Below, piece after piece: positions 724 to 44,229 of a stretch of 64,000 nucleotides of DNA (its first letter is position 1; the number at the start of each line of letters is the position of its first letter). The position numbers were made by a program, and so were the translations under genes. Source of the stretch: Hallerella succinigenes (GTDB lineage: Bacteria; Fibrobacterota; Fibrobacteria; Fibrobacterales; Fibrobacteraceae); NCBI RefSeq assembly GCF_002797675.1, contig NZ_PGEX01000001.1:434001-498000 (forward strand). Direction: 5' to 3'. The notes under the pieces are model-generated. The model was not told the origin of the DNA, ran no database searches, and worked only from the letters and a program-made list of their open reading frames with translations.

Positions 724-2388
724 TTATTCCAAGGTTCCCAGATTCTTTGACTGGGAGCCTTTTTTTGTTTTGAGTTCATAAAGGCCCGGATACCCGCGGA
801 AATGCACGGCACCGTTTTCGTCTGCGACAAGAGTTTCGTTCGTCGTCCAGACCTTGTGCCACAAGTCGTAAACCCTTTTACCCGCAGGCTTTTCCGTTCC
901 GTCCGCAGCAATGAAGCCTCCGTTGCCCGGAATCCAATGACGGCTATCCCAGAAGCCCCAGAAGAGAATTCCCTTCACTGCAGGATGGCTAAAGGCGGAA
1001 CGGAGGAACATTTCATACTGCTCCGCGCGTTCTTCTTCCGAGAAGACAAATCCGCGATCATACGAACCCATGTCGAATTCCGTCACCTTGATCGGAAGGC
1101 CGAGTTCCGCTAAACGGTCCAGGCGTTCCTTGATCAGCGCAGGCACGACCTTTCCACCGTTGAAGTGACACTGCACACCGATGCCCATCACCGGAACCTT
1201 GCGGTCGAGCATGCCCTTGATGAGTTCGTAATAACGTTCCGTTTCGCCCATCGCGACGACGTTATAATCGTTCACGTAAAGCTTCGCGCTCGGATCGGCG
1301 CGGTGCGCCCATACAAAGGAGCTGTCGAGAAGATCCCAGCCGCACTTGTCAAAGAGATACGTTTCGTGGATCGGTTCGTTCCAAACGTCGTACTCGGTGA
1401 TTCTGCCCTTGTATTCCTTCACGTCGCGGTCAATGCGGTCATGAATCTTTTGGGCGATTTCCTTGCAGGAACCTTGATTGCCGAAATGCTTGTCGTAGTC
1501 GTACTTTTGAATGCCCCAAACGAGCGTGTGAGCTCGGAAGCCCCAGTTGTAAGCCTTTGCAAAGTCCAGGTATTTCTTCAGTTCTTCACGGCGAATTTTT
1601 CCCTTTTTCGGTTCGTATTCCGGCCACTTGAACTGGTTTTCGGGAACCGCATACCAGAAGTACTTATTGGCGGTATTACGGTACCAAGTTTCCAGGCTAT
1701 CATTCATTTTGCCGTAGAAGGCAATTGCCGTACCGAATGGGAACGCATGACGCTTGAGCGCCATGTGGACCGTATCGCCCGGAGTAAATCCGTCCGCCGT
1801 CAGATTCTGCTTGCGAATGGAATCGATACGCGCCGGTGAATTCTTGTACCAGTTTACGTCAAAGCTTTCATCGACCGTTTCCACGGAGACATCATCCAAG
1901 TAAACGTTACCCGTCAAATATCCCAGCTGGAAAACCACATTGTTCACGCCGTAACCTTTTTGATCCGGCAAGAACTTCATCTTGTAAGTTTTCCATTCCG
2001 GAGTGAGCGTAAACGAAGAAGAAGTCTTTTGGCGATAATCCGGAGGACCGCCCTGCACAACAGCATTGATAGAGCCGCCCTTGTCGGCTTTCGCCTTAAA
2101 GCTCAATTCATAAAAGACCGTATCTGCGAGGAATTTAGGCGGCTGCAGCTGAAGTCCCCACCAATCCTTTGGTTTCGCGGTGATCGAAACGACTGCACCC
2201 TGGGAACCTTCGAAACCGATGCCCGGCGCACCTATCTTTGAAGAGACTGTCGCAGGTCCATCGGGATTGTTCCAAAGGTACCAGCCGCCATCTCCGTATT
2301 CCATGTCTCCGTTCGTCATCACGTTCTTGGCCGAAACATTTGCCGCCAAAGCCAATGCGGTCAAAGCGAAAAGCGTTTTAGGAAGCAT
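724..2388 (-). CDS. Secreted endo-1,4-beta-xylanase, GH10, with N-terminal carbohydrate-binding domain
   Basis: 554 aa. Residues 1-20 are a Sec signal peptide (MLPKTLFALTALALAANVSA). Residues about 22-175 form a jelly-roll region resembling CBM4/9-type modules (NVMTNGDMEYGDGGWYLWNN; VYLDDVSVE). From about 190 the GH10 barrel follows: the acid/base glutamate is E338 in DVWNEPIHE and the nucleophile is E437 in IKVTEFDM. Typical GH10 segments RAHTLVWG and ILFWGFWDSRHW are present. The enzyme would hydrolyse the xylan backbone outside the inner membrane. AAGGAG lies four bases before the ATG and fixes the start. Only 39 bp of native upstream DNA remain before a tandem IS insertion, so its promoter may have been displaced. 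Confidence 0.93.
   Translation of the reverse strand: MLPKTLFALTALALAANVSAKNVMTNGDMEYGDGGWYLWNNPDGPATVSSKIGAPGIGFEGSQGAVVSITAKPKDWWGLQLQPPKFLADTVFYELSFKAKADKGGSINAVVQGGPPDYRQKTSSSFTLTPEWKTYKMKFLPDQKGYGVNNVVFQLGYLTGNVYLDDVSVETVDESFDVNWYKNSPARIDSIRKQNLTADGFTPGDTVHMALKRHAFPFGTAIAFYGKMNDSLETWYRNTANKYFWYAVPENQFKWPEYEPKKGKIRREELKKYLDFAKAYNWGFRAHTLVWGIQKYDYDKHFGNQGSCKEIAQKIHDRIDRDVKEYKGRITEYDVWNEPIHETYLFDKCGWDLLDSSFVWAHRADPSAKLYVNDYNVVAMGETERYYELIKGMLDRKVPVMGIGVQCHFNGGKVVPALIKERLDRLAELGLPIKVTEFDMGSYDRGFVFSEEERAEQYEMFLRSAFSHPAVKGILFWGFWDSRHWIPGNGGFIAADGTEKPAGKRVYDLWHKVWTTNETLVADENGAVHFRGYPGLYELKTKKGSQSKNLGTLE
733..767 (+). terminator. Rho-independent terminator of the HD-domain gene
   Basis: GGTTCCCAG and CTGGGAGCC form a 9-bp stem with one G-T pair around a 9-nt loop, followed by a run of seven T. 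It lies 22 bp after the HD-domain stop codon and within the last codons of the convergent xylanase gene, so this DNA codes on one strand and terminates transcription on the other. Confidence 0.8.
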
Positions 2389-2495
2389 AAGACTCCTTCG
2401 TTTAAGTTCCTTTTGAATATATATATAGTCGTCCCTTAAAATCCCGCCCAGCCCGCATAACTATTGGGAAAAACTGATTTCTACCCTGTGAAAAT

Positions 2496-2540
2496 ATTGC
2501 AAGGTTTTCTAAAATATGATTGAAAACCTTGCAATTTTTT
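2496..2540 (+). terminator. Hairpin plus T-run guarding the transposase start (copy 1)
   Basis: ATTGCAAGGTTTTC (2496-2509) and GAAAACCTTGCAAT (2522-2535) are perfect 14-bp arms around a 12-nt loop. A six-T run leads directly into the ATG at 2541. This is the form of an intrinsic terminator placed ahead of the gene. By analogy with other insertion sequences, it could stop host transcription from reading into the transposase, or hide the start region in read-through RNA. The same hairpin is in the other copies at 3984-4028, 23318-23362 and 24806-24850. Confidence 0.6.
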
Positions 2541-3893
2541 ATGTACAGACCGCCAAAATCCCACGCACAGACAAGCCTTTTCTGTTCCCTTGAGGAGCAG
2601 TTGAACCACAAGCATTCCCTCTACGTTCTCGCGAACAAGATTGACTGGAACAAGTTCGAGACCGAGTTTTCGAAACGGTTTGACGACAAAATGGGTGCGC
2701 CGAACAAGCCGATCCGTCTCATGACCGGGCTCATCATCCTGAAGCACATCCGCAACGTATCGGACGAGTCCGTCGTGGAGCAGTTTCAGGAAAACGCCTA
2801 TTACCAGTATTTTTGCGGAGAACGGTTCTTCTCGACGGAGCAACCCTGCGACCCGAGCGAACTTGTTCACTTCCGGCACATGATTGGCGAAGCGGGCATG
2901 GACATGATCCTCAAGGAAAGTATCCTCGTCAACGATGACCACGATAAACAAGGACCGACAGGATGCGGCACGGTCTTTCTTGACACGACCGTGCAGGAAA
3001 AGAACATCACGTTCCCTACAGACGCCAAACTTGCGAACAAGATAATAGAACAGGTACAGAGGATCGTGGAAGAGCATGATCTTCCGCAAAGACAGTCCTA
3101 CAAGAGAACCTTGAAGAAGGTCCATCGTGACCAGCGTTTCCGCAATCACCCGAAGAACGGCAAGAAGGCTCACAAGGCAGATCGCAGGCTGAAGACAATC
3201 GCGGGACGGCTCGTCCGTGAATTAGAGCGAAATCTCGCCAGCAAGAACTTGTTGAACACGTACAAAGAAAAAATCGAGCTTTTCAAAAAAGTTCTGGCAC
3301 AGAAGAAATGCGACAAGGACAAGGTCTATTCGCTTCACGAACCCGAAGTAAAATGCATCGGCAAGGGCAAGGAACACAAGAAATACGAGTTCGGCAACAA
3401 GGTGTCAATCGCCCGGAGCTACAGCGGCATCATTGTCGGCGCGGTCTCGTTCCGGGACGAGTATGACGGACATACGATAGACGATACGCTTGACCATGTT
3501 GAACAAATGCTTGGATTCAGGCCGAGCCAGGCCGCATGCGACCGAGGCTACCGCGGACAAAAGGAATCCGGAACGACAAAGATCGTGATACCGGACGTCC
3601 CGAAGAAAAACGCGACTTACTACCAGAAGGAAAAGGCTCACAAGCTTTTTTGCAAGAGGGCAGGCATCGAGCCTATCAACGGCCACCTGAAAAGCGACCA
3701 CCGTATGGGTAGAAATTTCTACAAGGGAATCTTTGGCGACATGCTCAATGCAAAGCTTGCAGCAGCGGCGTTCAACTTCAAGAGGGCCATGAGGCGCTTT
3801 TTTGTCCTGTTGGAATGGCTATACTGTTGCTTCCTTTGCCGGGAAGGGGTGAATAAAAACGGCGAACCTCCTTATCCTGCGCTCGCGAAGTGA
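2541..3893 (+). CDS. IS5-family transposase, copy 1
   Basis: 450 aa from the ATG after the hairpin. A TTG start at 2520 in the same frame would add seven residues but lies inside the hairpin loop. The N-terminal half is the DUF772-type helical region (PIRLMTGLIILKHI; YYQYFCGE). Candidate DDE residues are D148 (VFLDTT), D334 (ACDRGYRG) and E377 (GIEPINGHLK). The protein is identical in copies 1, 2 and 3. It cuts and rejoins the IS ends. Confidence 0.9.
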   Translation: MYRPPKSHAQTSLFCSLEEQLNHKHSLYVLANKIDWNKFETEFSKRFDDKMGAPNKPIRLMTGLIILKHIRNVSDESVVEQFQENAYYQYFCGERFFSTEQPCDPSELVHFRHMIGEAGMDMILKESILVNDDHDKQGPTGCGTVFLDTTVQEKNITFPTDAKLANKIIEQVQRIVEEHDLPQRQSYKRTLKKVHRDQRFRNHPKNGKKAHKADRRLKTIAGRLVRELERNLASKNLLNTYKEKIELFKKVLAQKKCDKDKVYSLHEPEVKCIGKGKEHKKYEFGNKVSIARSYSGIIVGAVSFRDEYDGHTIDDTLDHVEQMLGFRPSQAACDRGYRGQKESGTTKIVIPDVPKKNATYYQKEKAHKLFCKRAGIEPINGHLKSDHRMGRNFYKGIFGDMLNAKLAAAAFNFKRAMRRFFVLLEWLYCCFLCREGVNKNGEPPYPALAK

Positions 3894-3915
3894 CTTTTTA
3901 AGGGTCAACTATATA

Positions 3916-5397
3916 GTCATCCCTTAAAATCCCGCCCAGCCCGCATAACTGTTGGGAAAAACTGATTTCTACCCTGTGAAAATATTGCAAGGTTTTCTAA
4001 AATATGATTGAAAACCTTGCAATTTTTTATGTACAGACCGCCAAAATCCCACGCACAGACAAGCCTTTTCTGTTCCCTTGAGGAGCAGTTGAACCACAAG
4101 CATTCCCTCTACGTTCTCGCGAACAAGATTGACTGGAACAAGTTCGAGACCGAGTTTTCGAAACGGTTTGACGACAAAATGGGTGCGCCGAACAAGCCGA
4201 TCCGTCTCATGACCGGGCTCATCATCCTGAAGCACATCCGCAACGTATCGGACGAGTCCGTCGTGGAGCAGTTTCAGGAAAACGCCTATTACCAGTATTT
4301 TTGCGGAGAACGGTTCTTCTCGACGGAGCAACCCTGCGACCCGAGCGAACTTGTTCACTTCCGGCACATGATTGGCGAAGCGGGCATGGACATGATCCTC
4401 AAGGAAAGTATCCTCGTCAACGATGACCACGATAAACAAGGACCGACAGGATGCGGCACGGTCTTTCTTGACACGACCGTGCAGGAAAAGAACATCACGT
4501 TCCCTACAGACGCCAAACTTGCGAACAAGATAATAGAACAGGTACAGAGGATCGTGGAAGAGCATGATCTTCCGCAAAGACAGTCCTACAAGAGAACCTT
4601 GAAGAAGGTCCATCGTGACCAGCGTTTCCGCAATCACCCGAAGAACGGCAAGAAGGCTCACAAGGCAGATCGCAGGCTGAAGACAATCGCGGGACGGCTC
4701 GTCCGTGAATTAGAGCGAAATCTCGCCAGCAAGAACTTGTTGAACACGTACAAAGAAAAAATCGAGCTTTTCAAAAAAGTTCTGGCACAGAAGAAATGCG
4801 ACAAGGACAAGGTCTATTCGCTTCACGAACCCGAAGTAAAATGCATCGGCAAGGGCAAGGAACACAAGAAATACGAGTTCGGCAACAAGGTGTCAATCGC
4901 CCGGAGCTACAGCGGCATCATTGTCGGCGCGGTCTCGTTCCGGGACGAGTATGACGGACATACGATAGACGATACGCTTGACCATGTTGAACAAATGCTT
5001 GGATTCAGGCCGAGCCAGGCCGCATGCGACCGAGGCTACCGCGGACAAAAGGAATCCGGAACGACAAAGATCGTGATACCGGACGTCCCGAAGAAAAACG
5101 CGACTTACTACCAGAAGGAAAAGGCTCACAAGCTTTTTTGCAAGAGGGCAGGCATCGAGCCTATCAACGGCCACCTGAAAAGCGACCACCGTATGGGTAG
5201 AAATTTCTACAAGGGAATCTTTGGCGACATGCTCAATGCAAAGCTTGCAGCAGCGGCGTTCAACTTCAAGAGGGCCATGAGGCGCTTTTTTGTCCTGTTG
5301 GAATGGCTATACTGTTGCTTCCTTTGCCGGGAAGGGGTGAATAAAAACGGCGAACCTCCTTATCCTGCGCTCGCGAAGTGACTTTTTAAGGGTCAAC
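3916..5397 (+). mobile_element. IS5-family insertion sequence, copy 2 (1482 bp)
   Basis: Directly follows copy 1 after the single hexamer TATATA, in the same orientation. It differs from copy 1 at two left-end positions: 3919 is A (copy 1 has G at 2431, inside the terminal repeat) and 3951 is G (copy 1 has A at 2463). The encoded transposase is the same. Confidence 0.88.
4029..5381 (+). CDS. IS5-family transposase, copy 2
   Basis: 450 aa, identical in sequence to the product of 2541-3893, with the same candidate DDE residues and the same hairpin before the ATG. It ends 16 bp before the right end of its element. Confidence 0.9.
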   Translation: MYRPPKSHAQTSLFCSLEEQLNHKHSLYVLANKIDWNKFETEFSKRFDDKMGAPNKPIRLMTGLIILKHIRNVSDESVVEQFQENAYYQYFCGERFFSTEQPCDPSELVHFRHMIGEAGMDMILKESILVNDDHDKQGPTGCGTVFLDTTVQEKNITFPTDAKLANKIIEQVQRIVEEHDLPQRQSYKRTLKKVHRDQRFRNHPKNGKKAHKADRRLKTIAGRLVRELERNLASKNLLNTYKEKIELFKKVLAQKKCDKDKVYSLHEPEVKCIGKGKEHKKYEFGNKVSIARSYSGIIVGAVSFRDEYDGHTIDDTLDHVEQMLGFRPSQAACDRGYRGQKESGTTKIVIPDVPKKNATYYQKEKAHKLFCKRAGIEPINGHLKSDHRMGRNFYKGIFGDMLNAKLAAAAFNFKRAMRRFFVLLEWLYCCFLCREGVNKNGEPPYPALAK

Positions 5398-5534
5398 TAT
5401 ATATCTTCTCCCAAATTCCAGTCGATACAGCAGACACAGTTGGTACAAAAGGTTATTTTCCCCTGGATTCAGTTTTTTTTTCGCTCTTTTTTCAGACTTT
5501 CTTAAACTTTTTTCATTTTTTCTACAAAATACCC

Positions 5535-5794: not shown

Positions 5795-5869
5795 GGGCGA
5801 TTAGCTCAGTTGGTTCAGAGCAGCTGCCTTACAAGCAGCGGGTCAGCGGTTCGAATCCGTTATCGCCCA
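5795..5869 (+). tRNA. tRNA-Val (anticodon TAC)
   Basis: The acceptor strands GGGCGAT and ATCGCCC pair. The D-arm (TTAGCTCAGTTGG), the anticodon stem GCTGC/GCAGC with loop CTTACAA, and the T-arm GGTTCGAATCC are all present. The anticodon TAC at 5830-5832 reads valine codons. No CCA is encoded. Confidence 0.95.
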
Positions 5870-5880
5870 GAAGATTTTCT

Positions 5881-5956
5881 GGGGTGGTAGCTCAATTTTG
5901 GTTAGAGCACCGGCCTGTCACGCCGGAGGTTGCGAGTTCAAGCCTCGTCCGTCCCG
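5881..5956 (+). tRNA. tRNA-Asp (anticodon GTC)
   Basis: The acceptor GGGGTGG pairs with CCGTCCC using two wobble pairs. The anticodon stem CCGGC/GCCGG encloses CTGTCAC, with GTC at 5917-5919. The T-arm AGTTCAAGC is present and CCA is not encoded. It lies 11 bp after tRNA-Val, so the two are probably processed from one transcript. Confidence 0.95.
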
Positions 5957-21898: not shown

Positions 21899-21948
21899 AT
21901 GAATTATTTATTTTACAGAAAGAAAATTACATCTTCATCTTCTAGATA

Positions 21949-23430
21949 GTTGACCCTTAAAAAGTCACTTCGCGAGCGCAGGATAAGGAGGTTCGCCGTT
22001 TTTATTCACCCCTTCCCGGCAAAGGAAGCAACAGTATAGCCATTCCAACAGGACAAAAAAGCGCCTCATGGCCCTCTTGAAGTTGAACGCCGCTGCTGCA
22101 AGCTTTGCATTGAGCATGTCGCCAAAGATTCCCTTGTAGAAATTTCTACCCATACGGTGGTCGCTTTTCAGGTGGCCGTTGATAGGCTCGATGCCTGCCC
22201 TCTTGCAAAAAAGCTTGTGAGCCTTTTCCTTCTGGTAGTAAGTCGCGTTTTTCTTCGGGACGTCCGGTATCACGATCTTTGTCGTTCCGGATTCCTTTTG
22301 TCCGCGGTAGCCTCGGTCGCATGCGGCCTGGCTCGGCCTGAATCCAAGCATTTGTTCAACATGGTCAAGCGTATCGTCTATCGTATGTCCGTCATACTCG
22401 TCCCGGAACGAGACCGCGCCGACAATGATGCCGCTGTAGCTCCGGGCGATTGACACCTTGTTGCCGAACTCGTATTTCTTGTGTTCCTTGCCCTTGCCGA
22501 TGCATTTTACTTCGGGTTCGTGAAGCGAATAGACCTTGTCCTTGTCGCATTTCTTCTGTGCCAGAACTTTTTTGAAAAGCTCGATTTTTTCTTTGTACGT
22601 GTTCAACAAGTTCTTGCTGGCGAGATTTCGCTCTAATTCACGGACGAGCCGTCCCGCGATTGTCTTCAGCCTGCGATCTGCCTTGTGAGCCTTCTTGCCG
22701 TTCTTCGGGTGATTGCGGAAACGCTGGTCACGATGGACCTTCTTCAAGGTTCTCTTGTAGGACTGTCTTTGCGGAAGATCATGCTCTTCCACGATCCTCT
22801 GTACCTGTTCTATTATCTTGTTCGCAAGTTTGGCGTCTGTAGGGAACGTGATGTTCTTTTCCTGCACGGTCGTGTCAAGAAAGACCGTGCCGCATCCTGT
22901 CGGTCCTTGTTTATCGTGGTCATCGTTGACGAGGATACTTTCCTTGAGGATCATGTCCATGCCCGCTTCGCCAATCATGTGCCGGAAGTGAACAAGTTCG
23001 CTCGGGTCGCAGGGTTGCTCCGTCGAGAAGAACCGTTCTCCGCAAAAATACTGGTAATAGGCGTTTTCCTGAAACTGCTCCACGACGGACTCGTCCGATA
23101 CGTTGCGGATGTGCTTCAGGATGATGAGCCCGGTCATGAGACGGATCGGCTTGTTCGGCGCACCCATTTTGTCGTCAAACCGTTTCGAAAACTCGGTCTC
23201 GAACTTGTTCCAGTCAATCTTGTTCGCGAGAACGTAGAGGGAATGCTTGTGGTTCAACTGCTCCTCAAGGGAACAGAAAAGGCTTGTCTGTGCGTGGGAT
23301 TTTGGCGGTCTGTACATAAAAAATTGCAAGGTTTTCAATCATATTTTAGAAAACCTTGCAATATTTTCACAGGGTAGAAATCAGTTTTTCCCAATAGTTA
23401 TGCGGGCTGGGCGGGATTTTAAGGGACGAC
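21949..23430 (-). mobile_element. IS5-family insertion sequence, copy 3 (1482 bp)
   Basis: Same element as at 2428, in reverse orientation. Its left-end bases match copy 1 (GTCGTCCC; A in ACTATTGGG). The transposase matches copies 1 and 2 exactly at the protein level. Confidence 0.88.
21965..23317 (-). CDS. IS5-family transposase, copy 3
   Basis: 450 aa, identical in protein sequence to the product of 2541-3893. The start follows the same hairpin and T-run. Confidence 0.9.
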   Translation of the reverse strand: MYRPPKSHAQTSLFCSLEEQLNHKHSLYVLANKIDWNKFETEFSKRFDDKMGAPNKPIRLMTGLIILKHIRNVSDESVVEQFQENAYYQYFCGERFFSTEQPCDPSELVHFRHMIGEAGMDMILKESILVNDDHDKQGPTGCGTVFLDTTVQEKNITFPTDAKLANKIIEQVQRIVEEHDLPQRQSYKRTLKKVHRDQRFRNHPKNGKKAHKADRRLKTIAGRLVRELERNLASKNLLNTYKEKIELFKKVLAQKKCDKDKVYSLHEPEVKCIGKGKEHKKYEFGNKVSIARSYSGIIVGAVSFRDEYDGHTIDDTLDHVEQMLGFRPSQAACDRGYRGQKESGTTKIVIPDVPKKNATYYQKEKAHKLFCKRAGIEPINGHLKSDHRMGRNFYKGIFGDMLNAKLAAAAFNFKRAMRRFFVLLEWLYCCFLCREGVNKNGEPPYPALAK

Positions 23431-23436
23431 TAGATA

Positions 23437-24918
23437 GTTGACCCTTAAAAAGTCACTTCGCGAGCGCAGGATAAGGAGGTTCGCCGTTTTTATTCACCCC
23501 TTCCCGGCAAAGGAAGCAACAGTATAGCCATTCCAACAGGACAAAAAAGCGCCTCATGGCCCTCTTGAAGTTGAACGCCGCTGCTGCAAGCTTTGCATTG
23601 AGCATGTCGCCAAAGATTCCCTTGTAGAAATTTCTACCCATACGGTGGTCGCTTTTCAGGTGGCCGTTGATAGGCTCGATGCCTGCCCTCTTGCAAAAAA
23701 GCTTGTGAGCCTTTTCCTTCTGGTAGTAAGTCGCGTTTTTCTTCGGGACGTCCGGTATCACGATCTTTGTCGTTCCGGATTCCTTTTGTCCGCGGTAGCC
23801 TCGGTCGCATGCGGCCTGGCTCGGCCTGAATCCAAGCATTTGTTCAACATGGTCAAGCGTATCGTCTATCGTATGTCCGTCATACTCGTCCCGGAACGAG
23901 ACCGCGCCGACAATGATGCCGCTGTAGCTCCGGGCGATTGACACCTTGTTGCCGAACTCGTATTTCTTGTGTTCCTTGCCCTTGCCGATGCATTTTACTT
24001 CGGGTTCGTGAAGCGAATAGACCTTGTCCTTGTCGCATTTCTTCTGTGCCAGAACTTTTTTGAAAAGCTCGATTTTTTCTTTGTACGTGTTCAACAAGTT
24101 CTTGCTGGCGAGATTTCGCTCTAATTCACGGACGAGCCGTCCCCCGATTGTCTTCAGCCTGCGATCTGCCTTGTGAGCCTTCTTGCCGTTCTTCGGGTGA
24201 TTGCGGAAACGCTGGTCACGATGGGCCTTCTTCAAGGTTCTCTTGTAGGACTGTCTTTGCGGAAGATCATGCTCTTCCACGATCCTCTGTACCTGTTCTA
24301 TTATCTTGTTCGCAAGTTTGGCGTCTGTAGGGAACGTGATGTTCTTTTCCTGCACGGTCGTGTCAAGAAAGACCGTGCCGCATCCTGTCGGTCCTTGTTT
24401 ATCGTGGTCATCGTTGACGAGGATACTTTCCTTGAGGATCATGTCCATGCCCGCTTCGCCAATCATGTGCCGGAAGTGAACAAGTTCGCTCGGGTCGCAG
24501 GGTTGCTCCGTCGAGAAGAACCGTTCTCCGCAAAAATACTGGTAATAGGCGTTTTCCTGAAACTGCTCCACGACGGACTCGTCCGATACGTTGCGGATGT
24601 GCTTCAGGATGATGAGCCCGGTCATGAGACGGATCGGCTTGTTCGGCGCACCCATTTTGTCGTCAAACCGTTTCGAAAACTCGGTCTCGAACTTGTTCCA
24701 GTCAATCTTGTTCGCGAGAACGTAGAGGGGGTGCTTGTGGTTCAACTGCTCCTCAAGGGAACAGAAAAGGCTTGTCTGTGCGTGGGATTTTGGCGGTCTG
24801 TACATAAAAAATTGCAAGGTTTTCAATCATATTTTAGAAAACCTTGCAATATTTTCACAGGGTAGAAATCAGTTTTTCCCAACAGTTATGCGGGCTGGGC
24901 GGGATTTTAAGGGACGAC
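23437..24918 (-). mobile_element. IS5-family insertion sequence, copy 4 (1482 bp), diverged
   Basis: The most different of the four copies. Its left end has GTCGTCCC as in copies 1 and 3 but the G of copy 2 in ACTGTTGGG. The coding region has at least four substitutions not seen in the other three, changing three amino acids. Copies 3 and 4 are therefore not a very recent simple duplication of each other. Confidence 0.88.
23453..24805 (-). CDS. IS5-family transposase, copy 4
   Basis: 450 aa. It differs from the other three copies at three residues: HPLYVLA instead of HSLYVLA near the N-terminus, KKAHRD instead of KKVHRD, and TIGGRL instead of TIAGRL. The candidate catalytic D, D and E are intact. 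The HPLY form matches what I recall as usual for this family, so copy 4 may be nearer the ancestral sequence. Confidence 0.9.
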   Translation of the reverse strand: MYRPPKSHAQTSLFCSLEEQLNHKHPLYVLANKIDWNKFETEFSKRFDDKMGAPNKPIRLMTGLIILKHIRNVSDESVVEQFQENAYYQYFCGERFFSTEQPCDPSELVHFRHMIGEAGMDMILKESILVNDDHDKQGPTGCGTVFLDTTVQEKNITFPTDAKLANKIIEQVQRIVEEHDLPQRQSYKRTLKKAHRDQRFRNHPKNGKKAHKADRRLKTIGGRLVRELERNLASKNLLNTYKEKIELFKKVLAQKKCDKDKVYSLHEPEVKCIGKGKEHKKYEFGNKVSIARSYSGIIVGAVSFRDEYDGHTIDDTLDHVEQMLGFRPSQAACDRGYRGQKESGTTKIVIPDVPKKNATYYQKEKAHKLFCKRAGIEPINGHLKSDHRMGRNFYKGIFGDMLNAKLAAAAFNFKRAMRRFFVLLEWLYCCFLCREGVNKNGEPPYPALAK

Positions 24919-25217
24919 TAGATAAATACGGTATTGCGTACAATATTGTGAAAATCTATCCCAATGGTGTTCGTGTAGGAAACATCCCTTTGCATTCGAC
25001 AAGAGCGAAACGTACGGGGATAAACCAATCTTGGTTCCCCGCGTCATGGAGTGAAAAGACTATTAAACGGGCAGGAGAACATGTAGCCCAATTACACAGG
25101 AACCGCAATGTTCCTGACGGTCAAATTATGTACGGAACTTTTAAAGGTCTTCGTGGAGGTGTAATCAAAACAAATGGGCAAATAGCAACAGCCTTTCCCG
25201 ATAGCAATCAACCATAG
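24919..25217 (+). pseudogene. EndoU nuclease toxin, C-terminal fragment
   Basis: About 99 codons remain after the IS end. The sequence fits the second half of the bacterial EndoU RNase domain found at the tips of CDI/Rhs-type toxins: YNIVKIYPNGVRVGNIPLHS, the family block SWFPASWSEKTIKRAGEHVA, and MYGTFKGLRGG with IATAFP. The N-terminal part, which holds the catalytic His pair of the family, is missing. The DNA left of the IS dimer does not supply it, so the toxin was already headless before, or was trimmed with, the insertion. An immunity-like gene starts nine bases after the stop. The fragment cannot be active alone. Confidence 0.65.
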
Positions 25218-25430: not shown

Positions 25431-26207
25431 CTAGCGGCTTAACTTTTTATCCAGTCCGTAGATTTCCCGCATGGAGATGTCTTTGTGCGGGTCGGAACTG
25501 CGGATGTCTATCGTATAGGCGTTGTGGATTATCCTGTCAAGTATGGAATCCGTCAACGGGTTCGCAAGACCGCCCAACTGCTCGTACCATTCCGAGGAAG
25601 GGTACTGCGAGCAGAAAATCGTGGACGATTTCCCGCTACGCCGATGCAGGATTTCGAAGATGGCCTTCTGTTCGCTTTCGCTGGGTTTCAGCAGCAGCCA
25701 TTCGTCGATAATCAGCAACGCCGGTTTCGTGTACTTCAGCATCGACTTCGTGAAGGTCCTGTTTTCGCGGGCCATCTCCAGTTCTATCAACAAATCCGGC
25801 AAACGTACGAATTTCGTGTTGTAGAACTGGCGACACGCCTCGTAACCGAAAGCGCAGGCCATGAAGGTCTTGCCGCTGCCCGTGGCCCCGGTGATGAAGA
25901 CGTTGCGGCCTTCGCGAACGAACTCGCAGGAAGCGAGCCTGGCAATCAAATCCCGGTTCAGTTTCCTGCCCGACGAGTAGTCGATTTCGTTGATATTGGC
26001 TCCTTTCTGCTCAAGCCCGGCACGTTTCACGAGCCGGTGCAGGGCGTTGTTCTTGCGCTGGCAATATTCGATATCCACAAGCAGGCCGAAACGGTCGTCG
26101 AACGAAATGCTTGACATGTTCGGATCGTCCCGTTGCGCATCGAAGGCGTTCGCCATGGCGCTGAGGCGCATCTCGATGAGTTTGTTCCGTGTCGCTTCGT
26201 TAGTCAT
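25431..26207 (-). CDS. istB: IS21-family transposition helper ATPase IstB
   Basis: 258 aa from MTNEATRNKLIEMRLSAMAN, selected because GGAGGG lies just before this ATG. It is an AAA+ ATPase related to DnaC, with Walker A GATGSGKTFMACAFG and Walker B LLIIDEWLL. IstB helps the transposase choose and capture the target. Its start overlaps the end of istA by eight bases, the usual coupled order. Confidence 0.93.
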   Translation of the reverse strand: MTNEATRNKLIEMRLSAMANAFDAQRDDPNMSSISFDDRFGLLVDIEYCQRKNNALHRLVKRAGLEQKGANINEIDYSSGRKLNRDLIARLASCEFVREGRNVFITGATGSGKTFMACAFGYEACRQFYNTKFVRLPDLLIELEMARENRTFTKSMLKYTKPALLIIDEWLLLKPSESEQKAIFEILHRRSGKSSTIFCSQYPSSEWYEQLGGLANPLTDSILDRIIHNAYTIDIRSSDPHKDISMREIYGLDKKLSR

Positions 26208-27732
26208 TGTCCCTCCTGTAGTATTCGGCCCCACGGGTTATCCCCCGCGGCCTTTCCGCAGGTTTCTTGGTCCTGTCGCCGTTTGCCGCAAGCAGGTTCT
26301 GGACGCTCTTGAAAGTCGGGGTAACCCCGAAAGAAATCATCCGTTCGCAGGCGGCTTCCAGCGAGACATCGGAGTAGTCCTTCGCCAGCGACAGGATCGC
26401 CATGCAGGCCTTGTACGTCTGCTGTTCAATGGGTTTGCTGGCCAGCACGCGTTCGATTACCGTCAGCGTGCTGTAGCCGATTTTGCGCGCCCAGTTGCGG
26501 AAACGGTCGCCATCCCATTCAAGGAACTTCTGGTGCTTTTCCGGCATGTGGACGGCCAATGTGCTATATTTTCCCTTGCAGCCGAGCATTTTTGCGTGCG
26601 ACGCTATCCTGTTCCCGTCATCGAATATCTCGACGATGGAATCGGTTTCACGGACATCCACCTTCTTGCCGATGAAGCCGAACGGGACCGAATAGAAGTT
26701 GCCCTCGACGCAGACATGGTAGTTGAATTGGACCGTAAGACTGCGCCATGTGGCGTTCTCGTAGCGTGTCCGGGGCAGCGGCAAGAGGAACGTTCTTTCT
26801 TCCAGGTCGAACAACCCTTTTCTGCTGCCCTCCTTCTTTTGGAACGGCCTTTCGTTGTATTCCTCCAGCTTCCTGCGGATGGCACGGTTGAGTTCCCCGA
26901 TGCCGAAGAACTCCTCGTTCCTCAACGCAGCGATGATCCATGTGGACACGTTGCCGACGGTCCCCTCTGCGCTGGCCTTGTCCTTCGGGGCCCGAACCCT
27001 GGCGGGAATGATCGCGGTGCCGTAATGTTCGGCAAGTTCCTGGTAGCTCGAATTCAGTTCGTCCGCGTATTTCCTGTTGTGCGTCACTGCGGTCTTGCAG
27101 TTGTCGGGCACGAGCATCTTCGAGACTCCGCCGAAAAACTCGAACATGTGGATGTGTGCGTCGTTCCATGACTTCTGTTTTTCGTCCGGGAAGGCCTCCG
27201 CGTAGGCATACATGCTGTAGTTGAGAACGCCTACGAACACGTAAGCCTTTTTCTGTTCCCCCGTTTCGGGGTCGATGATGTATGCGGGATCTCCGGCCCA
27301 GTCGACTTCGATCTGCTCGCCGGGTTTGCGGTTGATGTGCATTGTAGCCCTGCGGACGCGTTCGTCCTGCAGGATGTAGTGGCAGAACTGCGAGTACATC
27401 AGCGGCTTGGTATTCTCGAGCCTGCATTCTTCAAGATATTCCGCCCAGAGGAGCTTCTTGTTCACGCCGTTGCGCAGCAGTTCGTTCTTAACGTGGTCGA
27501 AATCGGGCAACTTCCTGTCGGTGATTTTCCTGGTCTCTTTACCGTTCGGGTGTATGATCTTGTCGATTTCCCTGTCGGTGAGACGTTCTTCCAGGGGCCA
27601 GCGGAGATTGTACTCGTTGGCCAGTTTCAGGACCTTGTTTACGGTCTTTTTTGACACCTGGCAGCTTGCCGCAATGTCGTTCTGGCTTAATCCCAGGCTT
27701 CGCAGCCTGAGGATTTCGCGGTATTTGGTCAT
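26200..27732 (-). CDS. istA: IS21-family transposase IstA
   Basis: 510 aa. The N-terminal HTH (LRLRSLGLSQNDIAASCQVS) is followed by an RNase-H-like catalytic domain with DDE residues in EVDWAGD, MLVPDNCKTAV and KDKASAEGTV, and then a C-terminal beta-barrel region (NFYSVPFGFIGKKVDV). The start has a strong AGGAGG site nine bases upstream. The length is normal for the family and no frameshift is seen. Confidence 0.95.
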   Translation of the reverse strand: MTKYREILRLRSLGLSQNDIAASCQVSKKTVNKVLKLANEYNLRWPLEERLTDREIDKIIHPNGKETRKITDRKLPDFDHVKNELLRNGVNKKLLWAEYLEECRLENTKPLMYSQFCHYILQDERVRRATMHINRKPGEQIEVDWAGDPAYIIDPETGEQKKAYVFVGVLNYSMYAYAEAFPDEKQKSWNDAHIHMFEFFGGVSKMLVPDNCKTAVTHNRKYADELNSSYQELAEHYGTAIIPARVRAPKDKASAEGTVGNVSTWIIAALRNEEFFGIGELNRAIRRKLEEYNERPFQKKEGSRKGLFDLEERTFLLPLPRTRYENATWRSLTVQFNYHVCVEGNFYSVPFGFIGKKVDVRETDSIVEIFDDGNRIASHAKMLGCKGKYSTLAVHMPEKHQKFLEWDGDRFRNWARKIGYSTLTVIERVLASKPIEQQTYKACMAILSLAKDYSDVSLEAACERMISFGVTPTFKSVQNLLAANGDRTKKPAERPRGITRGAEYYRRDND

Positions 27733-27879
27733 TAGACCTCCTGTCTATTTTGTTCGCACGGAATTGTGCAGGCCAAAATTAGACAGGTTTCCTTGTCTCC
27801 GGAATCGCGGTTTCCGTTTGACCGGTACGCCGGTTTCCATTACTCCGGTTTCATGGTGTAATTCACTCCGGAATACTCA

Positions 27880-28075
27880 TTCAATCGAGTTCTTGGAAAA
27901 TCAGGCGACAGTAGACGAAATTTGTTGGGTCAGCGAAGTCTTTGACGATATCGCAGCCAAAACTCAGTCAAAGGACTTTATCGAAGCCCTTCACAGAATT
28001 CACGACAAACTGCCTGAAGAGGAGGGCAAATTAATTGAACCCAGTATAAAATCTGCTGAATTGGCAATTCAGTAA
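27880..28075 (+). pseudogene. EndoU immunity gene, 3' part
   Basis: Begins with the second copy of TTCAAT and continues the interrupted gene: IEFLENQATVDEICWVSEVF, then FIEALHRIHDKLPEEEGKL, to the stop at 28073. The frame matches 25227-25357 once the IS and one target copy are removed. Confidence 0.7.
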
Positions 28076-28123
28076 AAAAGAAAGGACTCGAACAAGTTGC
28101 AGCGAACAATCTTGTTCAAGTCC
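28073..28123 (-). terminator. Terminator at the end of the Rhs operon
   Basis: GGACTCGAACAAG and CTTGTTCAAGTCC form a 13-bp stem with one mismatch or wobble and a 14-nt loop. Read on the - strand, it is followed by TTTCTTTTTTA. It closes the long - strand toxin operon just before the convergent immunity fragment and shares bases with the end of that gene. Confidence 0.65.
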
Positions 28124-28171
28124 ATTCCCAGATATGCTAAAGCAAATCCTAGTTAACAGGGAAGCTTACAA

Positions 28172-28565
28172 TAGGACAATTGTACCGCAGGGACATCATC
28201 AAACAGATAGACGACCCAGTGTCTTGACATACGCCCTATGCGGTCATAGGACTTCATTTTTATGGATACCGGATTACCTTCACCGTCGTAAGCAATGATA
28301 GCCCCGACATCATAATCGCGTATTCGTCCATCTGAGACAGAATGTTTCCAAGCAGCGAACTGTTCAGGTTTACCCCGTATAGGGTCAATGTATCGGATGT
28401 CGGCTTTCCGTAAACTGTGCGGACTATGGGAGTAAGAGCTGCGGAGGCAATCGCCGTATTTGGGGCAGCAAAGTCATGACCGCCATGTACTTCGCCGATT
28501 GCGACAACACGCCCTTCGCTGTCATATACATTCGCCATAAAGTAGTTGTTTCCCAAAGCCTTCTG
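28172..28565 (-). pseudogene. Rhs protein fragment, frameshifted
   Basis: About 395 bp closely match 34094-34489 inside the large Rhs gene: both encode KALGNNYFMANVYD and VVAIGEVHGGHDFAAPNTAI. A missing base (TATTCGTCC here, TATTCCGTCC there, near 28328) shifts the frame, so the copy ends in unrelated residues. Both borders are abrupt. It is a dead duplicate of a middle Rhs segment, not of the toxin-bearing end, probably left by recombination within the array. Confidence 0.8.
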
Positions 28566-28593
28566 ATACACGATATCATCCATGCAAAAAATT

Positions 28594-28959
28594 TTAGTAA
28601 TCTGCCATTTTATTGCCATCTATCTTGTAATAAGGCCATGTATGCCTAACTACATCAGACGGAATATAATTTTCATCTGCCACTGATTCTTCCTTCAAGA
28701 CATTCAGCAGAATTTCTGCATTCATTTTTTCTTTTAAAACTAAATTCACATATAATTCATGATAAATTGTAATACACGAATCACAGTATTTTTTTACTGA
28801 TATTTCTGCAAAAAGATAATCACATTTTATTCCATCTGTAGATTGGCAAAGAGCGAATTTCGCTCCACTATCATCTATATAAATAGGTCCCCGTTCAGAC
28901 GCAAACGAATAAATAGGTTTTACGGAAGAAGAACCTGAATCTTTGGGAAAATAATACAT
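28594..28959 (-). CDS. Unknown small protein, possible truncated immunity protein
   Basis: 121 aa from the first ATG (MYYFPKDSGSSSVKPIYSFA). The frame stays open about 25 codons further upstream without a usable start codon, so the N-terminus may be lost. It has four Cys, two of them close together in KYCDSCITIYHELYVN, which suggests an exported protein with disulfides, but no signal peptide is visible from this start. It lies behind the lipoprotein at 29028 in the Rhs operon and is A+T-rich like the other immunity genes. No family is recognised. Confidence 0.45.
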   Translation of the reverse strand: MYYFPKDSGSSSVKPIYSFASERGPIYIDDSGAKFALCQSTDGIKCDYLFAEISVKKYCDSCITIYHELYVNLVLKEKMNAEILLNVLKEESVADENYIPSDVVRHTWPYYKIDGNKMADY

Positions 28960-29027
28960 TTGTGCCGCATAATAAAAAAATAGAACATTTAACTCACCAA
29001 CCCCACTCGCTTTTATTTGTAAAGTTT

Positions 29028-29273
29028 CTAGATATTCTTTGATGTTTTATATTCTAGAGAACAAGGGTATAAAATTATTCGATTCTCTATTTTTTCTTCA
29101 CACACATTATAGCGTAAAATAGACTTTTCCCCTGGTTCATATGCATACCTGCTATGAAATGAGTCCTTAATTCTCTTTGAAAAAATTTCCACACTCCAAT
29201 GATGTCGGTTTCCATTCAAAACAGCACAACCACTTATCACTAAAAGGGTTACAACAAGAAATCTAAAAGTCAT
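29028..29273 (-). CDS. Small lipoprotein, putative immunity to the HExxH toxin
   Basis: 81 aa. MTFRFLVVTLLVISGCAVLN is a lipoprotein signal with lipobox ISGC, so the mature part (about 65 residues) sits on the periplasmic face of a membrane. Its start overlaps the stop of the orphan Rhs toxin by four bases. That position is where the cognate immunity gene is expected. Two later Cys (YNVCEEK; LYPCSLEY) could form a disulfide. No family is recognised. Confidence 0.6.
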   Translation of the reverse strand: MTFRFLVVTLLVISGCAVLNGNRHHWSVEIFSKRIKDSFHSRYAYEPGEKSILRYNVCEEKIENRIILYPCSLEYKTSKNI

Positions 29274-30583
29274 CTTCGCTGCGTCTCCAAAAGAATATTG
29301 TACAAGCGCCTTCGGTTTCCAAAAGTTTCTAAAGTTTTTATTGTTTGTTTGCTTGTTGATTTTCTTTCAATAAATGTTTTTAAATCAGCGATTTCTTTCG
29401 CACGTTCATTAGGCCAGAATTTATTAAACTTATGATCTAATAAACGATCTCTTACTAGGGCTTCTTCGGCATCAATACTATTATTAAACATCAGTCCCAT
29501 ATTACCAGATCCCATATAATTAAATTTTTGGTGAAGACCTTCATGCGCAATAGTTTCATAAAAATTCGCCGCTGATGTGGTGGCTGATTTTGCAATTTTT
29601 ATATTGCCCAAATTATCAGTCGCTCCCTCTGCATCTACAAATCCGGTTTTGCTGGTAGCACTTTCTACCCGAAAATATTCCTGTGTCATATCCACAGATA
29701 TCGTTCCTAAAGCTAGACCTTCTTCATTTCCTATATAATTGGCAACTCGATTTAAGAAATCAAAACGTTTGCCAAAACTATATGTTTCCTCGTATACACT
29801 CCATTGATAATTGACATCTGTTTGAAAACGAATTTCACTCAGCGTTCCTCCTAAAACTGCTCCAATGCCTACTTGTGCTAGAAAACCATTCCGCCCCCAC
29901 CAACTCCATTCGGAACGATTCCCCAAAGTGTTATTCAAAAAATAACTTGATGTATAACCAGCAGCAGAACCTGCTGCACCACCAACAGCACCACCAGCAA
30001 AAGCCGCAGCTGAACCAGATTCCATAAGAACTCCTGCAGCACCCGTAGCCAAGCCACTGACTGCGCTTCCGACCCCTCCACTAGCTGCTCCAGCAACGGC
30101 CCCCACAGCTGCACCTTGTGCTATCGCTTTTCCACACCCCACTTCATTTGCCCCGCTGCAATTCACCGCCGAAACTGTTCCGCCAACAGCGGCTCCTATA
30201 GCGGCCCCCACAATGATGGCCGCGGTTACGCTTTCCCCGTTTGGGTCAATGTAGTTTAGCGGGTCACCACCGTAAGTATAGGGGTTCGCAAACTGTCCGG
30301 CAGGGTCCGGCGTAAGCCATAGTCCAAAGAGCGGGTCATAGAATCGTGCGCCGAAGTAATACTTGTTCAAGTCGGAATCAAATTCCTTGGACTGCCAGCG
30401 TCTTGAATCTTCAGCATCGTCATGAGCCAAGTCAATTAGTGTCCCGTATGGGTAATAGGCGTATGCGCTCTGGACTCCAGATGTATTTGCATAGCCCCTG
30501 ATATTGCCCTGGACATCCGTCACAGGGAAATAGGCCAAGCCATTTTTGCGATAGCCACTACTAATCAAAAGCATTCTTGACAT
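29270..30583 (-). CDS. Orphan Rhs core with metallopeptidase-like C-terminal toxin
   Basis: 437 aa with no signal peptide. Residues about 10-170 are nearly identical to the large Rhs protein: YFGARFYDPLFGLWLTPDPA, then YGGDPLNYIDPNGES and the Gly/Ala-rich start of its tail. After that the sequence is unrelated to the main gene's tail. At about residue 343 lies YETIAHEGLHQKFNY, an HExxH zinc-protease motif, with downstream acidic residues that could give a third ligand. It overlaps the upstream lipoprotein by 19 bases. This is an orphan toxin cassette of the kind that can replace the main tail by recombination through the shared core. Expression as a separate protein is uncertain. Confidence 0.75.
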   Translation of the reverse strand: MSRMLLISSGYRKNGLAYFPVTDVQGNIRGYANTSGVQSAYAYYPYGTLIDLAHDDAEDSRRWQSKEFDSDLNKYYFGARFYDPLFGLWLTPDPAGQFANPYTYGGDPLNYIDPNGESVTAAIIVGAAIGAAVGGTVSAVNCSGANEVGCGKAIAQGAAVGAVAGAASGGVGSAVSGLATGAAGVLMESGSAAAFAGGAVGGAAGSAAGYTSSYFLNNTLGNRSEWSWWGRNGFLAQVGIGAVLGGTLSEIRFQTDVNYQWSVYEETYSFGKRFDFLNRVANYIGNEEGLALGTISVDMTQEYFRVESATSKTGFVDAEGATDNLGNIKIAKSATTSAANFYETIAHEGLHQKFNYMGSGNMGLMFNNSIDAEEALVRDRLLDHKFNKFWPNERAKEIADLKTFIERKSTSKQTIKTLETFGNRRRLYNILLETQRR

Positions 30584-31197
30584 TTCCTGTCAGAATTTTC
30601 ATTTTCTTTTACCAAAATGCACGTTTGAAAATAAATGTAATCTTGCAAATTCTCTGAATATATAGCATTGAAAGAACGCTCTTGTTTCGAACACGTATTT
30701 CCATAGCGTAAAAAATCGGTTTTCTTTTCAAATTCTTTTGTTCCGACATAAATCCTAGTCCAAACAATGGTTTTATCATATTCAAGAAATGAAGTCTGGT
30801 ATTTTACCAACCGATATACTTCTCCTGTATTAATTTCCACTAAAAAGGACTGAAAAAGGGCCTCATGTCTTAATTTATTCTTACATCCTCCAAGATCGCC
30901 CGCTCCAATTAACGCATTGCAAAAACCTGTAAGGCAATCAAAGCCTTGTTCATTATAATCCTGCATACAATTGCTCTCTTGTTCTTCTCCATCAAGATAA
31001 TACTCCACTTTGTATCTAGATTCATCGCCTTCTGCACTTTTCCCTAGATAAGATTGATAATACCTTTCTGCCATTTTATAAGAATATGGGTCAATCAAAT
31101 CAGTCGTTAATACAATATCTTGAGTATTTCTTGGCGTTGCACACGAAAGAATGAGAAAATTTATCATCGATACAATCCATTTTCTTTTGAATTTCAT
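30565..31197 (-). CDS. Lipoprotein, putative immunity protein 2
   Basis: 210 aa from MKFKRKWIVSMINFLILSCA (lipobox LILSC). An upstream in-frame ATG at 31218 would place extra residues before the signal. The C-terminal half is paralogous to the product of 31209-31790: VWTRIYVGTKEF aligns with WIHTMVYLGERNF, IYSENLQDYIYFQTC with TYSDCLKDSIFYETC, and the ends are CQECF and IEQCF. This protein has an extra Cys-rich insert (NCMQDYNEQGFDCLTGFCNA). Tandem lipoprotein paralogues behind an Rhs toxin fit immunity to an effector acting in the periplasm. Confidence 0.65.
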   Translation of the reverse strand: MKFKRKWIVSMINFLILSCATPRNTQDIVLTTDLIDPYSYKMAERYYQSYLGKSAEGDESRYKVEYYLDGEEQESNCMQDYNEQGFDCLTGFCNALIGAGDLGGCKNKLRHEALFQSFLVEINTGEVYRLVKYQTSFLEYDKTIVWTRIYVGTKEFEKKTDFLRYGNTCSKQERSFNAIYSENLQDYIYFQTCILVKENENSDRKCQECF

Positions 31198-31208
31198 ACA
31201 CACATTCC

Positions 31209-31790
31209 CTAAAAACACTGCTCGATTTTATAGCTAGAATCGTATTCTATACGTTTCATTACACATGTTTCATAAAAAATGGAATCTTTTAAGCAATCAG
31301 AATATGTGGAATTAAAATATTTCTCCGGCCAATGTTTTTCATCTTTTTTTCTTTTCCGAAAATTTCTTTCACCCAAGTACACCATTGTATGTATCCACGT
31401 AATCTTTTCCCCGGAATCGCTCGGTTTGTACTTCCCCAACAGATAATATTTTTTTTGTTTTCTTTCCGTGCAACGCTCGGTCATCGAAATGGATATTTCC
31501 GCATTTTTTATTTCATGATATGGTATAAGAGGATATTTGAAGAAAGTTCTACTGTAAAAAAAGCCAGGCAAGTCAATCTTTTCGCTTTTGGGTATTTCAG
31601 GATAATAAGTATTGTTAAAACCATAATGCATTTCATAACCAAAAGGGAGAAGATAACCATCTTCATCAAAATTATAAACATCATCGGTCACTAGCCACGT
31701 TCTCACCGCTAAAAGTTCCTTGTTTGAGCAACCGATGAATATTAAACAAATGAAAATACACATAATATTTTTTTTGGAGAAGTTCACCAT
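31209..31790 (-). CDS. Lipoprotein, putative immunity protein 1
   Basis: 193 aa. MVNFSKKNIMCIFICLIFIG followed by Cys is a lipoprotein signal. The gene starts seven bases before the stop codon of the large Rhs gene, so translation is coupled to the toxin. The mature part is polar and aromatic-rich (GFNNTYYPEIPKSEKIDLPG) and ends in a Cys-containing block shared with the next gene. I infer the cognate immunity protein of the toxin tail encoded just upstream. No family is recognised. Confidence 0.68.
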   Translation of the reverse strand: MVNFSKKNIMCIFICLIFIGCSNKELLAVRTWLVTDDVYNFDEDGYLLPFGYEMHYGFNNTYYPEIPKSEKIDLPGFFYSRTFFKYPLIPYHEIKNAEISISMTERCTERKQKKYYLLGKYKPSDSGEKITWIHTMVYLGERNFRKRKKDEKHWPEKYFNSTYSDCLKDSIFYETCVMKRIEYDSSYKIEQCF

Positions 31791-36760: not shown

Positions 36761-36768
36761 TTTTCCTC

Positions 36769-44064: not shown

Positions 44065-44099
44065 AAGGTAAATATAAAAACGCGAACATTTTTTGCTAT

Positions 44100-44229
44100 A
44101 AGCCAGGCGTTGCGGGCTGGCGTCTGAAGCCCGCAGTGGGGGTGCGCGGAAGACCCAAAGGGGCTGAAGCCAGGGGGATTCCTCCCCCACCATACGCAAA
44201 AAGGGCCGCATCGCTGCGGTCCCTTTTTA
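44100..44229 (+). repeat. Intergenic repeat copy B with terminator hairpin
   Basis: Shorter partner of 21698-21898, in the same orientation: AAGCCAGGCGTTGCGGG, GCGGAAGACCC, GGCTGAAGCCAGGGGG, then CCCCCACCATACGCAAAAAG and a terminator hairpin (AAAGGGCCGCA TCGC TGCGGTCCCTTTTT). The hairpin is nearly symmetrical and could stop transcription on both strands. It stands upstream of the giant gene's start and would insulate the Rhs operon. The rest of the 341-bp gap (44065-44405) holds a hairpin-like GGGGCTACGCCCC and the putative antitoxin operator. Confidence 0.65.

What the first reader, a model, noticed from the sequence alone, without database searches (positions are those of the whole stretch)
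2422..5403. IS dimer A: the 6-bp spacer equals both outer flanks
Seen: TATATA occurs before copy 1, between copies 1 and 2, and after copy 2, and the two 1482-bp elements are in the same orientation. Simple integration of a pre-formed circle or dimer would carry a donor-derived spacer, not the local target. The pattern therefore suggests that a second copy used the same hexamer as target (reforming the duplication), or that IS plus hexamer was duplicated in place. Two differences at the left ends of copies 1 and 2 (2431/3919 and 2463/3951) favour a second insertion over a very recent exact duplication.
Basis: partly seen in the sequence, partly recalled or inferred. Interest (0 to 1): 0.72.

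Follow-up and report, generated by a model that had tools for sequence, protein, structure and literature searches.

The report
Jumping genes stacked in one target
A bacterial jumping gene in a Fibrobacter genome has landed three separate times directly beside an older copy of itself, each time reusing the short target sequence already duplicated there; this is probably because its own ends help rebuild the kind of site it prefers, so the finding is a clean example of a mostly known behaviour rather than a new system.

Summary
The complete genome (Fibrobacter, 3.13 Mb) holds 24 copies of this 1482-bp IS5-family element, including three head-to-tail dimers (two in this window). Each dimer has a different hexamer (TATATA, TATCTA, TAGTTA), present before, between and after the copies. 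In each dimer one partner is the recent 14-copy sequence type; the other is a different sequence type (in B and C it carries older alleles; in A it matches a single copy elsewhere). In-place duplication would give identical partners, and an imported dimer or circle would bring a donor spacer (chance of three matches about 6e-4). Best explanation: a second element inserted into the target duplication of a resident copy. The extended target is Y-TANNTA-R, and the element's ends (5'-G...C-3') restore that context, so the site regenerates. A simulation with this preference expects 0.4 to 1.8 dimers against 3 seen, so a dedicated end-targeting activity is possible but not required. TANNTA duplication is typical of the transposase's subgroup. 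E. coli ISKpn26 forms the same kind of dimers, nearly always head-to-tail. Interest is modest.

The parts
2422..2427 (.). Left outer target hexamer TATATA of dimer A
2428..3909 (+). Dimer A copy 1, 1482-bp IS, majority haplotype H0 (identical to 13 other copies)
2486..2548 (+). Stable hairpin just upstream of and reaching the transposase start; likely limits translation (inferred)
   Evidence: -24.5 kcal/mol, z -6.2
2520..3893 (+). Transposase, 457 aa from TTG 2520 (an ATG at 2541 is also possible); candidate catalytic motifs LDTT, ACDRGYRG, IEPINGHLK (assigned by eye)
3910..3915 (.). Spacer hexamer TATATA between copies 1 and 2
3890..3917 (+). Promoter-like match spanning the junction (GTGACT-16-TATAGT); function not shown
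3916..5397 (+). Dimer A copy 2, haplotype H1 (4A, 36G), identical to the single copy at genome 834611
4008..5381 (+). Transposase of copy 2, intact, 457 aa
5398..5403 (.). Right outer target hexamer TATATA of dimer A
21943..21948 (.). Outer hexamer of dimer B (TATCTA in IS orientation, TAGATA on + strand)
21949..23430 (-). Dimer B, majority-haplotype (H0) copy
23431..23436 (.). Spacer hexamer of dimer B
23437..24918 (-). Dimer B, older-type copy (36G, 188C, 189C, 694C, 775G)
24919..24924 (.). Outer hexamer of dimer B

Best explanation
Each dimer arose in two steps. A first element inserted at a TANNTA site and duplicated the hexamer. Later a second element, usually from the recently spread H0 lineage, inserted by ordinary transposition into one of those two hexamers and duplicated it again, giving hexamer-IS-hexamer-IS-hexamer. 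The flanking hexamer stays a preferred target because the full target is Y-TANNTA-R: the element starts with G and ends with C, so a resident copy supplies the preferred base on its side (C before, or G after, the hexamer). Shown by sequence: the three triple hexamers, the mixed haplotypes, the Y-TANNTA-R preference, the end bases and the four-of-four head-to-tail junctions. Inferred: which partner came first, that the restored context raises the rate, and that inverted products are either not formed or lost.
For: Three dimers with three different hexamers, each with spacer = both outer flanks. Partners are never identical: B differs at 5 positions and C at 4, spread over positions 8 to 775. 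The alleles 188C/189C (B) and 440C/509C (C) occur in divergent copies or in F. intestinalis, so they are probably older. The second copy of A is exactly the haplotype of the single copy at 834611 (TACCTA flanks). Junction search in six congeneric genomes found only right end-TANNTA-left end joints: 3 here and 1 in G001, where the left partner is a truncated relic. Target flanks: 64 of 87 are Y(-1)/R(+1) against 42% of background TANNTA sites (p about 5e-9); C/G is 2.2-fold enriched. Orthologous unoccupied AT-rich intergenic site for A in three relatives. E. coli ISKpn26/IS5 show abutted head-to-tail copies with a YTAR spacer, including a triple and an ISKpn26+IS5 mixed pair.
Against: No sister strain with a single copy at one of these three sites was available, so the order of events is inferred. 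Gene conversion among copies clearly occurs (allele 36G is shared across haplotypes), so in-place duplication followed by conversion is not strictly excluded, least of all for dimer A. In four of eight abutted E. coli arrays read, the spacer matched only one outer flank.
Confidence: 0.87

Rival explanations
1. In-place duplication: unequal exchange or replication slippage between the two 6-bp target repeats duplicated IS plus hexamer, and the copies diverged or were converted later.
For: Gives spacer = flanks and same orientation automatically. Gene conversion among copies is visible (allele 36G in several haplotypes).
Against: Predicts identical partners; none of three is identical, while 14 dispersed copies are identical to each other. 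It needs long conversions in B and C, and recombination on only 6 bp of homology.
Confidence: 0.07
2. Insertion of a pre-formed circle or dimer, or homologous integration of an IS circle into a resident copy.
For: Circles and tandem dimers are real intermediates in IS30, IS3 and related families (PMC9333248, PMC3299598).
Against: The spacer would come from the donor's flank. Matching the local hexamer three times has a chance of about 6e-4 given hexamer use at 59 independent ends.
Confidence: 0.03
3. Active end-targeting: the transposase specifically recognises a resident end and inserts beside it, as IS30 does in IR-targeting, beyond what target-sequence preference explains. This is a refinement of the best explanation, not an exclusive alternative to it.
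For: 3 dimers against 0.4 expected with all sites open (P about 0.008). All four Fibrobacter junctions are head-to-tail. ISKpn26/IS5 in E. coli: about 14 abutted head-to-tail, 0 head-to-head, 1 tail-to-tail; IS30 IR-targeting gives exclusively left-right junctions (PMC9333248).
Against: If selection leaves only 20-30% of sites usable, 1.2-1.8 dimers are expected (P 0.13-0.26). Complete target duplications look like ordinary insertion. Inverted neighbours would form long palindromes that may be lost. ISRm12-like and ISRsp18-like elements on plasmids show no tandem.
Confidence: 0.3
4. Assembly artefact.
For: Repeats of 3 kb can be mis-assembled; no reads were available.
Against: Single complete contig; partners carry different variants; three loci with three hexamers; a fourth junction in an independent draft genome.
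Confidence: 0.02

Closest known systems
NCBIfam NF033578 transpos_IS5_1 elements (ISRm12, ISRsp18, ISGlo4 and relatives)
   Same: Transposase far above the family cut-off (470.9 vs 275 bits); GTCG...CGAC-type ends; 6-bp duplication read here in six relatives, TANNTA in five and CATATA in one.
   Different: Tandem copies not found for ISRm12 or ISRsp18 on plasmids.
ISKpn26 / IS5 (IS5 family, YTAR target, 4-bp duplication) in E. coli
   Same: Abutted head-to-tail copies with a target-type spacer, including a triple.
   Different: 4-bp target with few variants, so spacer = flank is less telling; only four of the eight abutted arrays read agree at every flank readable in the fetched stretch.
IS30 IR-targeting (also IS911, IS2)
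   Same: Insertion beside a resident end with exclusively left-right junctions (PMC9333248).
   Different: IS30 works through circles and joined ends and makes 2-bp duplications; here a full 6-bp duplication on all sides fits ordinary target-site insertion. Different family.
IS481 of Bordetella pertussis (NCTAGN, 6-bp duplication)
   Same: Six-base target with fixed core, duplicated on insertion (PMC3279416).
   Different: Different IS family; tandem re-use not examined here.

Membership tests
IS5 family, NF033578 (transpos_IS5_1) | Transposase above curated cut-off | tested here: met
   470.9 bits against 275, nearly full length; Pfam DUF772 above cut-off
IS5 family, NF033578 (transpos_IS5_1) | DDE catalytic motifs | tested here: inconclusive
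   Candidate D, D and E motifs near residues 154, 339 and 383, assigned by eye; DDE_Tnp_1 match just below Pfam cut-off
IS5 family, NF033578 (transpos_IS5_1) | Terminal inverted repeats of GTCG type and 6-bp TANNTA duplication shared with relatives | tested here: met
   (own copies); TATTTA, TATTTA, TAGTTA, TAAGTA, TAGTTA, CATATA in six relatives; not resolved in three others
IS30-like IR-targeting | Left-right junction only | tested here: met
   four of four; small number
IS30-like IR-targeting | Spacer not derived from the local target duplication (joined-end intermediate) | tested here: not met
   spacer is the local hexamer in all three dimers
IS30-like IR-targeting | Circle or joined-end intermediate in the cell | not testable with these tools
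   needs DNA from cells
In-place tandem duplication | Identical partners | tested here: not met

The most novel reading that the evidence does not exclude
The IS5-family transposase actively prefers the hexamer beside a resident copy, in one orientation, so an IS array becomes a safe landing pad that shields genes from new insertions while copy number grows. This would be an IS30-like end-targeting ability reached by a different route, through a target that the element's own ends rebuild.
Probability: 0.25. Interest if true: 0.55.

Novelty: new member of a known kind. Interest (0 to 1): 0.33.

Why it matters
It shows from sequence alone how tandem IS arrays can form without circles or in-place duplication: if an element's terminal bases complete its own target motif, every insertion leaves two good targets behind. 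The rule (target context = own end bases) can be checked in other IS families, and predicts where tandem IS, which can drive amplification and create junction promoters, should be frequent.

Tried and rejected
The first junction pattern in F. intestinalis (G005) gave two hits that were only TAGTC by chance, not dimers. Dimer B and C flanks have no clear unoccupied ortholog in the genus. IS5 itself gave no exact abutted IS5-IS5 pair in the rows listed for E. coli (two-piece joins with extra bases between); the abutted pairs are ISKpn26 or mixed. ISRm12 and ISRsp18 junctions: none in plasmids. A junction pattern for CAGGG-type ends found nothing in 168 genomes of the phylum. Literature searches in the held library found no description of this element or of this mechanism for the subgroup. 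Calls that failed: scripts 13 and 33, family search 73.

Full report
Observation. The sequence at 2422-5403 is as described: TATATA, a 1482-bp element, TATATA, a second 1482-bp element in the same orientation, TATATA. The elements differ at two positions, 4 and 36 of the element. Each encodes an intact transposase of 457 codons.

What the element is. The transposase scores 470.9 bits against a cut-off of 275 for NF033578, IS5 family, with Pfam DUF772. The ends are 5'-GTCGTCCCTTAAAA and TTTTAAGGGTCAAC-3'. Relatives on plasmids and in a MAG (ISRm12, ISRsp18, Sulfurospirillum, Methylomonas, Microvirga, a gammaproteobacterium) have GTCG-type ends and 6-bp duplications that are TANNTA in five of six cases. 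So the hexamer type is a trait of the subgroup. The genome is a single 3,127,022-bp contig. Its genus is Fibrobacter, inferred because 37 of the 38 protein hits in named genomes are in F. intestinalis ATCC 43854 and a same-genus genome (G005) shows matching contig lengths.

All copies. There are 24 copies: 21 of the 1482-bp type and 3 of a 94% variant. Fourteen are identical (H0) and one differs from them at one base. Three pairs are head-to-tail dimers: A 436428-439397 (TATATA), B 455949-458918 (TATCTA; window 21949-24918), C 1823634-1826603 (TAGTTA). Single copies have direct TANNTA duplications, two of them 7 bp (TATAATA, TATACTA). One copy, 1553700, has TATTTA and TAAATA instead. In 59 element ends (15 own single-copy loci plus draft-genome ends) 93% are TANNTA.

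Why this is not in-place duplication or an imported dimer. Each dimer pairs an H0 copy with a different haplotype: A with 4A,36G (same as the single copy at 834611); B with 36G,188C,189C,694C,775G; C with 8T,440C,509C,775G. Several of these alleles occur in the 94% copies or in F. intestinalis and are therefore probably older. In-place duplication predicts identical partners. A donor-derived spacer would have to match the local hexamer three times, with a chance of about 6e-4. Gene conversion among copies exists (36G is shared), so dimer A alone would not be conclusive.

Why the flanking hexamer is a good target. Bases next to the hexamer are Y on the left and R on the right in 64 of 87 flanks, against 42% for background TANNTA sites (p about 5e-9); C(-1)/G(+1) is 2.2-fold enriched and G(-1)/C(+1) depleted. 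The flank set includes the one G001 dimer junction, which adds at most 2 of 87. The element begins with G and ends with C, so each resident copy supplies the preferred base on the inner side of both its hexamers. With these weights, 24 insertions are expected to give 0.4 dimers if all about 6,300 sites are usable (P of 3 or more: 0.008) and 1.2-1.8 if 20-30% are usable (P 0.13-0.26). The usable fraction is an assumption; roughly a third of the loci lie in open frames on both sides (read by eye). So target self-regeneration may suffice, and a specific attraction to IS ends remains possible.

Orientation. All four junctions found in the genus are right end to left end, including one in G001 where the left partner is a 5'-truncated relic; chance 1/16. 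In E. coli, abutted ISKpn26/IS5 pairs are head-to-tail in about 14 records (some sharing one prophage site), head-to-head in none and tail-to-tail in one (listed rows only). Either inverted insertion is disfavoured or the resulting long palindromes are lost.

E. coli comparison. Eight abutted ISKpn26 or mixed arrays were read. In four (L128, a triple, and L131, L132, L133) every flank readable in the fetched stretch equals the spacer; the outer right flank of the triple was not fetched. In the others the spacer equals one outer flank only. L130 is ISKpn26 next to IS5, two different elements, which cannot be an in-place duplication.

Empty site. Three relatives carry the site of dimer A unoccupied, an AATATATAT stretch in the same intergenic position. 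The neighbouring gene is a GH10 xylanase whose start codon lies 39 bp from the first IS copy. No clear ortholog exists for B or C.

Known mechanisms. IS30 inserts either in hot spots or next to its own ends, the latter with only left-right junctions (PMC9333248). The result here looks similar but keeps a full 6-bp duplication, as in ordinary insertion. Statements on IS911, IS2 and palindrome loss rest on general knowledge.

Verdict. The phenomenon is real, recurrent in this genome and has counterparts in other IS5-family elements; the added point is that the element's ends recreate its target context.

Noticed in passing
window 2388-2428: Dimer A sits 39 bp upstream of the start codon of a GH10 xylanase gene (724-2388, minus strand), so it may alter its expression; a promoter-like match spans the IS-IS junction (3890-3917) but points away from that gene.
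   Followed up: partly
window 2486-2548: A strong hairpin (-24.5 kcal/mol, z -6.2) reaches the transposase start region, as in other IS that limit translation from read-through transcripts.
   Followed up: partly
genome 1553700-1555183 (L026): A 94%-type copy with flanks TATTTA and TAAATA, reverse complements instead of a direct repeat; perhaps recombination between copies.
   Followed up: no
genome 1326783-1330860 (L017): Two H0 copies in opposite orientation 1114 bp apart, each with its own target duplication, so two insertions and not a composite transposon.
   Followed up: partly
F. intestinalis ATCC 43854 draft, L058-L094: Dozens of contig ends stop inside this IS; it is a major cause of breaks in that assembly.
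   Followed up: no
window 26200-44211: A Mu-type transposase gene (26200-27732), a 1658-aa protein with RHS repeats (31784-36760) and a 2480-aa protein with a cadherin-like domain (36769-44211), with repeated segments at 28171-28565/34094-34489 and 30054/32673.
   Followed up: no
window 5795-5956: Two tRNA genes in tandem about 400 bp beyond dimer A.
   Followed up: no
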